From: Clostridia bacterium
GTDB lineage: Bacteria > Bacillota > Clostridia > TANB77 > CAG-508
DNA: 64,000 nucleotides
NCBI GenBank assembly: GCA_017936925.1
Contig: JAGBEP010000002.1
Coordinates: 1 to 64,000 of the forward strand
Direction: 5' to 3'
A model generated the notes under the pieces. The model made no database searches. It saw only the letters and a list, made by a program, of their open reading frames with translations, and was not told the DNA's origin. Made by a program: the position numbers and the translations under genes. Positions 108 to 560 of this stretch are shown here, piece after piece (within the stretch, counting starts at the first letter, position 1; each line of letters starts with the position of its first letter).

Positions 108-140
108 GTACAATCATTTATCTAGGCTGTGAATAGTAAC

Positions 141-162
141 AAAAAATGCACGATATTTCATA
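141..162. repeat. Left copy of a 22-bp exact direct repeat
   Basis: The 22 bases at 141-162 recur exactly at 512-533, 371 bp away. Both contain GCACGATATTTCAT. The right copy forms the left arm of a terminator hairpin; this left copy has no partner arm. The two copies bracket the toxin-antitoxin-like locus, so they may record an insertion or duplication event. Confidence 0.8.
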
Positions 163-180
163 TTTGAACTAATTAACATC

Positions 181-209
181 TTGAAGATAATTTAAATATA
201 TGATAGTAT
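181..209 (+). promoter_or_regulatory. Promoter for the candidate antitoxin RNA
   Basis: A -35 TTGAAG (181-186), a 17-bp spacer and a -10 TAGTAT (204-209) face right. Nothing protein-coding lies directly downstream on this strand; the first structure met is a 7-bp stem-loop at 214-232 and then the terminator at 293-317. This suits a promoter for a short RNA. Confidence 0.45.
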
Positions 210-212
210 GAA

Positions 213-320
213 TATGTAAGGAAGACTTACATAAAATAAAAAAGGAACACCTAATTTTGGATGTTAAGTGATTACCTTTTTGTAGTTTTCACAAAACCCC
301 CTGTTTATGGTGGTTTTTAT
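213..320 (+). ncRNA. Candidate antisense (antitoxin) RNA, about 105 nt
   Basis: A predicted transcript starts just after the -10 at 204-209 and ends at the hairpin terminator 293-317. It opens with a perfect stem-loop (ATGTAAG, loop GAAGA, CTTACAT; 214-232) and carries no credible open frame. It would be fully complementary to the 3' part of the minus-strand message for the 31-residue peptide, like RatA against txpA mRNA in Bacillus. The existence and ends of the RNA are inferred from sequence only. Confidence 0.4.
293..317. terminator. Bidirectional hairpin shared by convergent small transcripts
   Basis: AAAACCCCC (293-301) pairs with GGTGGTTTT (309-317) around the loop TGTTTAT, with one C/T mismatch. 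Read right, it is followed by TATTTT; read left, by GTTTTG. It lies immediately after the stop of the minus-strand peptide gene and at the end of the candidate plus-strand RNA, so it can end both. Confidence 0.65.
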
Positions 321-412
321 TTTAACACTATCATTTTAATAATAATATAGAATAAAATAAAAATAATTATAAATAAATTAATTAAAATAAAATATAATAA
401 TTTCTTATTCAC
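317..412 (-). CDS. Small hydrophobic peptide, candidate type I toxin
   Basis: A GTG-started frame of 31 codons on the minus strand encodes MNKKLLYFILIN followed by a nearly unbroken run of I, L, F and Y and a basic end (IKMIVLK). This is a single membrane helix with positive ends. An AGAAAGAGGTGA ribosome site lies 5 bases before the start, a promoter lies at 481-510, and a hairpin terminator directly follows the stop. Size, charge pattern and the convergent RNA fit type I toxins of the TxpA/BsrG or Fst kind. I see no sequence match to a named family, so the function is inferred. Confidence 0.5.
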   Translation of the reverse strand: MNKKLLYFILINLFIIIFILFYIIIKMIVLK

Positions 413-480
413 AACTATCACCTCTTTCTATAAAAAGAATAGAAGTAATCACCTAAACAATTAAATGTTCCTTAGGTAAT

Positions 481-510
481 AGAATATCAAATTATAAGAT
501 GTTAGGTCAA
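481..510 (-). promoter_or_regulatory. Minus-strand promoter for the small peptide message
   Basis: Read on the minus strand, TTGACC (510-505), an 18-bp spacer and TATTCT (486-481) make a usable sigma-A type promoter. Transcription would begin near 474 and give a leader of about 60 nt before the GTG at 412. The leader contains the 5' arm of the inverted repeat. Confidence 0.5.
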
Positions 511-511
511 G

Positions 512-533
512 AAAAAATGCACGATATTTCATA
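512..533. repeat. Right copy of the 22-bp exact direct repeat
   Basis: This is identical to 141-162. Here the repeat supplies the left arm of a complete terminator hairpin, suggesting that this is the original context and that the left copy is the orphan. Confidence 0.8.
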
Positions 534-560
534 ATTAAAAAATGTCGTGTTTTCTTTTTT
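520..560 (+). terminator. Strong terminator upstream of the Nudix-like gene
   Basis: CACGATATTT (520-529) pairs with AAATGTCGTG (540-549), ten pairs including one G-T, followed by TTTTCTTTTTT. It would stop plus-strand read-through into the gene at 603, whose extended -10 lies only a few bases downstream. Confidence 0.75.

What the first reader, a model, noticed from the sequence alone, without database searches (positions are those of the whole stretch)
163..511. Previously unannotated type I toxin-antitoxin-like locus in a gene-free stretch
Seen: a 31-codon minus-strand frame for a hydrophobic single-helix peptide (317-412) with a good ribosome site and promoter (481-510); a convergent promoter (181-209) for an RNA with a 5' stem-loop; a hairpin (293-317) that can end both; and an inverted repeat (244-276, 445-471) letting the toxin message pair its 5' and 3' ends. 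Known: TxpA/RatA, Fst and AapA systems use convergent RNAs and message folding. Inference: this is a chromosomal type I module, possibly of a new sequence family.
Basis: partly seen in the sequence, partly recalled or inferred. Interest (0 to 1): 0.72.

Follow-up and report, generated by a model that had tools for sequence, protein, structure and literature searches.

The report
New RNA-controlled toxin family, uncultured Bacilli
The stretch holds a small gene for a greasy membrane peptide and, on the opposite strand, an RNA that probably silences it; over 100 related copies, up to 15 per genome, occur in a group of uncultured Bacilli and match no catalogued RNA or protein family, so this looks like a large overlooked group of bacterial self-poison switches.

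Summary
Window 181-510 carries two convergent transcription units: a 31-codon hydrophobic peptide (412-317, minus) with promoter and ribosome site, and a roughly 110-nt plus-strand RNA (about 211-325) with its own promoter, 5' stem-loop and terminator, overlapping the 3' part of the toxin message. One detail was wrong: the hairpin at 293-317 ends only the plus-strand RNA. The toxin message most likely runs on to about 238-243 and ends at the 3' arm of the inverted repeat. A covariance model of the antitoxin core found 105 unique homologous loci in uncultured Bacilli: 29 of 41 genomes of one GTDB family have copies, up to 15 per genome, some in tandem. Of 99 assessable loci, 75 encode a hydrophobic peptide with a ribosome site on the opposite strand (same-strand control: 1). 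The 5' and 3' ends of each toxin message stay complementary while diverging (mean -31.8 versus -19.0 kcal/mol permuted; 0 of 20,000). The Shine-Dalgarno hairpin, the antitoxin stem-loop and the coding frame also show selection. Neither Rfam, Pfam, NCBIfam, PHROGs nor PADLOC names it. Best reading: a new, multicopy sequence family of type I toxin-antitoxin modules. Toxicity and transcription are inferred, not shown.

The parts
317..412 (-). Toxin-like open frame, 31 codons plus stop, GTG start: MNKKLLYFILINLFIIIFILFYIIIKMIVLK
   Evidence: opposite-strand homologous frames in 75 of 99 relatives; codon positions under coding selection
418..425 (-). Shine-Dalgarno AGAGGTGA, held in a hairpin with the anti-SD upstream
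   Evidence: SD opening cost in the family 6.75 versus 3.15 kcal/mol for shuffled upstream sequence, p 7e-17
418..448 (-). SD-sequestering hairpin of the toxin message
445..471 (-). 5' arm of the toxin message, pairs with the 3' arm
481..510 (-). Toxin promoter TTGACC - 18 nt - TATTCT
   Evidence: same position relative to the 5' arm as the -10 boxes of homologues read (inference)
244..276 (-). 3' arm of the toxin message and its probable intrinsic terminator (hairpin followed by TTTTTT)
   Evidence: conserved in homologues
181..209 (+). Antitoxin promoter TTGAAG - 17 nt - TAGTAT
   Evidence: Sequence; -35/-10 with 17-nt spacing at the same place in eight loci (read)
211..325 (+). Predicted antitoxin RNA, about 110-115 nt; antisense to about 88 nt of the toxin message 3' part
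   Evidence: ends inferred from promoter and terminator
214..232 (+). Antitoxin stem-loop SL1
   Evidence: Covariation: 5 of 7 pairs with two-sided changes in 21 loci and in 105 loci
244..276 (+). Antitoxin stem-loop SL2; same sense as the toxin message 5' arm; its loop is complementary to an unpaired bulge of the 3' arm
293..325 (+). Antitoxin terminator SL3 (hairpin 293-317 plus T-tract), overlapping the end of the toxin frame
   Evidence: Sequence; terminator-like hairpin at this place in 51 of 75 relatives versus 3.2 expected
138..168 (+). Left copy of a 31-bp direct repeat flanking the module (spacing 371 bp, about one module length)
509..539 (+). Right copy of the flanking direct repeat

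Best explanation
This is a type I toxin-antitoxin module of a new sequence family. The minus strand makes a message of about 230-240 nt for a 31-residue single-helix membrane peptide. The plus strand makes an antitoxin RNA of about 110 nt that is antisense to the last 90 or so nt of that message. Shown by sequence and comparison: a hairpin holds the Shine-Dalgarno site closed; the message's first and last nucleotides pair with each other; a loop of the antitoxin (SL2) is complementary to a bulge that stays open in that closed form. Inferred: the closed message is stable but barely translated. The antitoxin, made from its own promoter, contacts the bulge through SL2, zips along the 3' part and displaces the 5' arm, and the duplex is cut by RNase III (as for TxpA/RatA). 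If the antitoxin is lost or its supply stops, the longer-lived message is eventually translated and the peptide damages the membrane.
For: Homologue with the same layout in L101. Covariance models built on the antitoxin core alone find 105 unique loci. Features that were not in the models then recur: opposite-strand hydrophobic frame with ribosome site in 75 of 99 loci versus 1 of 99 on the same strand; cognate 5'-3' arm pairing -31.8 versus -19.0 +/- 0.76 kcal/mol permuted, 0 of 20,000, and 0 of 100,000 in a smaller set of 16; helix P1 64 of 65 cells paired with four pairs changed on both sides. SD hairpin p 7e-17 and antitoxin terminators 51 of 75 versus 3.2 expected. Codon-position differences 70/48/103 in 26 independent pairs, p 3e-5. 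SL1 covariation 0 of 500 shuffles. Fold z-scores -6.4 to -10.6 for five toxin messages. Multicopy and tandem occurrence. TxpA/RatA literature: about 120 nt 3' overlap, possible loop-loop start, RNase III-dependent decay (PMC3531473).
Against: No transcript, toxicity or neutralisation data. 24 of 99 loci show no such frame under the search rules: some are clear remnants (L073, L092 4285-4367), others may be missed. E-values come from shortened calibration. Permutation tests do not correct for relatedness of loci. The SD stays closed in free, antitoxin-bound and nascent states alike, so how translation is ever switched on is not explained. Antitoxin pairing to the 5' UTR was tested and is not cognate-specific.
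Confidence: 0.86

Rival explanations
1. A dispersed, self-spreading DNA repeat (MITE- or REP-like) whose inverted repeats are transposition signals; the small frame is incidental.
For: Multicopy, tandem arrays, many copies at contig ends, an inverted repeat, a flanking 31-bp direct repeat in the window, patchy occurrence.
Against: Coding selection, ribosome sites held in a conserved hairpin, antitoxin terminator and promoter at fixed places. A comparable flanking repeat was not seen at the other loci checked. The inverted repeats lie inside the transcription units, not at the ends of the unit.
Confidence: 0.06
2. An RNA-regulated small membrane peptide with a physiological role (stress or envelope peptide) rather than a toxin; the antisense RNA tunes it.
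For: Nothing in the sequence proves toxicity; single-helix peptides of 25-31 residues can be regulators.
Against: Multicopy, diversified, sometimes decayed copies (L073, L092) and layered repression fit toxin modules better.
Confidence: 0.1
3. A member of an already named type I family (TxpA, BsrG, Fst or AapA) that has diverged beyond recognition.
For: Same general layout; one very weak Rfam BsrG match on the correct strand of the G031 toxin message (19.1 bits versus cut-off 55, E 0.33).
Against: No Pfam, NCBIfam, PHROGs, PADLOC or Rfam match at or near threshold for window or relatives. Peptides are 24-34 residues with a basic N-terminus, unlike 59-residue TxpA. Repeats are inverted, not direct as in Fst.
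Confidence: 0.1
4. Leader or attenuator of the downstream NrtR-like gene (603-1418).
For: It lies just upstream.
Against: Both units are separated from the gene by a terminator-like palindrome (about 516-563) and the gene has its own -10-like box nearby; relatives sit next to unrelated genes.
Confidence: 0.02

Closest known systems
TxpA/RatA (Bacillus subtilis skin element)
   Same: Convergent RNAs overlapping at 3' ends; hydrophobic peptide with strong ribosome site; antitoxin loop and terminator complementary to the message 3' part; chromosomal (PMC3531473, PMC4147584)
   Different: TxpA is 59 residues, overlap about 75-120 nt; no sequence or profile similarity found; closure of the extreme 5' and 3' ends is described here, not in the passages read for txpA
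BsrG/SR4 (B. subtilis SPbeta)
   Same: About 120 nt 3' overlap; SD held in a stem; antitoxin acts from the 3' part (PMC4147584); very weak Rfam match of one relative
   Different: Match far below cut-off; in the model here antitoxin binding does not consistently strengthen SD sequestration
AapA/IsoA (Helicobacter, other Epsilonproteobacteria)
   Same: Message closed by a 5'-3' long-distance interaction plus SD hairpins (PMC6733600); multicopy family
   Different: Per the paper IsoA3 forms an 80-bp duplex only with the 3'-truncated toxin message; here the antitoxin matches the 3' part and carries the same sense as the 5' arm
Fst/RNAII (par of pAD1)
   Same: Convergent small RNAs, overlap at 3' ends, small hydrophobic peptide (PMC4147584)
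   Different: par has direct repeats that let the antitoxin block ribosome binding to the message, and a shared terminator; here repeats are inverted and the two RNAs have separate terminators

Membership tests
Type I toxin-antitoxin system (general kind) | Small hydrophobic peptide, under about 60 residues, with a transmembrane segment and ribosome site | tested here: met
   Window peptide 31 residues, hydropathy maximum above 3; 75 of 99 relatives
Type I toxin-antitoxin system (general kind) | Antisense RNA gene on the opposite strand with its own promoter and terminator | tested here: met
   Promoter at fixed place in eight loci; terminators 51 of 75 versus 3.2 expected. Predicted, not observed as RNA
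Type I toxin-antitoxin system (general kind) | Peptide is toxic and the RNA neutralises it | not testable with these tools
   Needs expression experiments
TxpA/RatA family | Sequence or profile similarity of peptide or RNA | tested here: not met
   No Pfam, NCBIfam or Rfam match
BsrG/SR4 family | Rfam BsrG (RF01412) at gathering score | tested here: not met
   19.1 bits versus 55 in G031; nothing in the window
Fst/RNAII (par) family | Direct repeats shared by both RNAs and a shared terminator | tested here: not met
   Repeats are inverted; terminators separate
AapA/IsoA family | 5'-3' closure of the message | tested here: met
AapA/IsoA family | Antitoxin that pairs with the 3'-truncated message rather than its 3' part | tested here: not met
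   Overlap is at the 3' part; pairing with the 5' UTR is not cognate-specific

The most novel reading that the evidence does not exclude
The antitoxin works as a mimic of the message's own 5' arm: because the repeats are inverted, it competes with the 5' arm for the 3' arm, so it recognises the closed, stored form of the message (through the open bulge) and turns it into an RNase III substrate, instead of binding the translatable form as IsoA does. The family would then be a distinct control logic, run in up to 15 parallel, cognate-specific copies per cell.
Probability: 0.35. Interest if true: 0.72.

Novelty: new variant of a known kind. Interest (0 to 1): 0.64.

Why it matters
Type I modules are hard to find because the peptides are tiny and unannotated, and they are reported from few lineages (PMC12390103). 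A family of more than 100 loci, found through its antitoxin RNA and supported by covariation, extends the known range into uncultured Bacilli with small genomes and offers many natural variants of one design. Multiple copies per genome make cross-talk and specificity directly testable, and the antitoxin-core model gives a way to find such systems without relying on the peptide.

Tried and rejected
DNA similarity in the genus, phages and plasmids with the window, and with the G031 module in phages and plasmids, gave nothing or only low-complexity AT matches. The peptide as a protein query gave only chance hits. Viral-contig patterns found nothing. Synteny around the NrtR gene does not hold. Linkage to NAD genes: several copies lie near NrtR or NAD genes, which first looked like enrichment, but three of those loci had been fetched by NrtR homology, and once their genomes proved to hold 3-7 copies each about three such neighbours in 80 loci are expected by chance, so this was dropped. 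Antitoxin pairing with the message 5' UTR, as in Fst, is not cognate-specific. A switch of SD accessibility on antitoxin binding was not consistent. False positives inside coding genes: L127-L132 and L139. A shared bidirectional terminator was rejected.

Full report
What was checked. The window begins at base 1 of contig C7 of a 1.72-Mb assembly in 31 contigs. Between the end of a truncated frame (91) and an NrtR-like gene (603-1418: NUDIX plus winged-helix domain) lies a stretch without other evident genes. Promoter-like matches alone mean little in such AT-rich DNA, but the predicted toxin message folds with z -7.2, and its frame has the highest hydrophobicity of the four hydrophobic small frames with a ribosome site in the window.

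Finding relatives. The peptide and plain DNA gave nothing useful. A scan of about 0.95 Mb of held loci for small hydrophobic frames with complementary flanks ranked a locus in L101 next to the window copy. Its antitoxin strand is plainly homologous, TATGAATATGT..AGG.A.ACTT.CATAAAATAAAAAAGGAA.ACCTA.TTTTG, and so is its layout. A covariance model of this 80-nt antitoxin core then found copies in other genomes of the order. Whole-genome searches with the second model found 3, 7 and 7 copies in the genomes of L101, L073 and L092. With the third model, 29 of 41 genomes in the GTDB family of L073's genome had matches, up to 15 each, some in tandem with a pitch of 340-445 bp. I analysed 105 unique loci.

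Independent tests. The models contain only the antitoxin core, so the following were free to fail, apart from point 6. (1) Opposite-strand frame: 75 of 99 loci have a hydrophobic frame of 18-50 codons with a ribosome site ending in the right interval; the same rule on the other strand finds 1 of 99. Peptides are mostly 24-34 residues, basic at positions 2-4, then one hydrophobic helix, often a terminal lysine. (2) Coding selection: in 26 independent pairs, differences at codon positions 1, 2, 3 are 70, 48, 103 (p 3e-5). (3) Closure of the message: message 5' arms pair far better with their own 3' arm than with others; mean -31.8 versus -19.0 kcal/mol after permutation, none of 20,000 as good. 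The 3' arm lies partly inside the modelled core, the 5' arm does not. In five hand-aligned loci helix P1 has 64 of 65 cells paired and four pairs changed on both sides, and in a set of 16 none of 100,000 permutations is as good. (4) SD hairpin: opening the ribosome site costs a median 6.75 kcal/mol, against 3.15 with shuffled upstream sequence (p 7e-17). (5) Antitoxin terminators: 51 of 75 versus 3.2 expected. (6) SL1: five of seven pairs with two-sided changes, covariation score above all 500 shuffles; these counts lean towards the model's structure. Permutations and shuffles do not remove relatedness among loci.

Anatomy and mechanism. In the window the antitoxin RNA should run from about 211 to 325: SL1 (214-232), SL2 (244-276), terminator SL3 (293-317 plus T-tract). 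The toxin message should start near 475-471 and end near 243-237, just after the 3' arm, whose local hairpin followed by TTTTTT looks like an intrinsic terminator. The 293-317 hairpin lacks a T-tract on the minus strand, so it is probably not a shared terminator. The two RNAs overlap by about 88 nt (88-99 in five loci). Because the arms are inverted repeats, SL2 of the antitoxin has the same sense as the message 5' arm and is complementary to the 3' arm; its loop (UUUUGGAU in the window, GUCGCA in G031) matches nucleotides left as a bulge when the message is closed. I infer loop-bulge contact, spread along the 3' part, displacement of the 5' arm and RNase III decay, as for TxpA/RatA (PMC3531473). 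The SD stays sequestered in full-length, antitoxin-bound and nascent forms, so the step that allows translation is open; 3' trimming as in AapA (PMC6733600) is possible but untested.

What is known. Rfam, Pfam, NCBIfam, PHROGs and PADLOC have no convincing match for window or relatives; the only hint is a sub-threshold BsrG match of one relative. Full-text searches of the open library found no description of such a family in these bacteria; subscription papers and T1TAdb itself could not be searched. The family works like the Gram-positive 3'-overlapping modules and shares end-to-end closure with AapA, but fails the defining sequence or repeat tests of TxpA, BsrG, Fst and AapA.

Caveats. No RNA or toxicity data. 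E-values come from shortened calibration. 24 of 99 loci lack a recognised frame. Searches over 40 genomes used strict filters, and the three broad surveys scored only 11-12 candidates per genome, so the counts are lower bounds. NrtR at E 1e-60 or better was found in none of the other 13 genus genomes, and UDG (1421-2068) in none of the other 23 family genomes searched, although other families of the order have it; contig C7 may be foreign or misbinned, so 'chromosomal in this species' is not established.

Noticed in passing
window contig C7 (window 1-64000): The NrtR-like gene was not found in the other genus genomes, and UDG (1421-2068) was not found in any other genome searched of the genome's own family, though UDG occurs in other families of the order. 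The contig may be misbinned or horizontally acquired.
   Followed up: partly
window 138-168 and 509-539: 31-bp direct repeat (90%) 371 bp apart flanks the module; together with 539-565 the right copy forms a palindrome with T-tracts on both strands. Could be a tandem-duplication or insertion footprint; not seen at the other loci checked.
   Followed up: partly
L092 1-6000, L101 1000-5830, L136 13200-17800: NAD-metabolism clusters (NadD, NadE, NAD kinase, CinA/PncC-like, ADP-ribosylglycohydrolase, nicotinate phosphoribosyltransferase) around NrtR-like regulators in uncultured Bacilli; toxin-antitoxin copies lie nearby but no more often than chance.
   Followed up: partly
L165 890-970 and 1327-1407 regions: Two tandem relatives with a strong ribosome site for one frame (MSMWKGYYG...) overlapping, out of frame, a hydrophobic 22-codon frame (MEYLVILAVLILLLGRNSKNKD): possible translational coupling as in mok/hok.
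   Followed up: no
L073 1-250; L092 4285-4470: Decayed copies: toxin 5' part replaced in L073, internal deletion removing SD and start in L092, antitoxin core intact.
   Followed up: yes
L092 3357-4268: 303-residue protein between two antitoxin-core copies, no Pfam match.
   Followed up: no
contig ends in G000, G176, G901, G908, G915, G898: Several copies lie within about 200 bp of contig ends, consistent with a repeat that breaks short-read assemblies.
   Followed up: no
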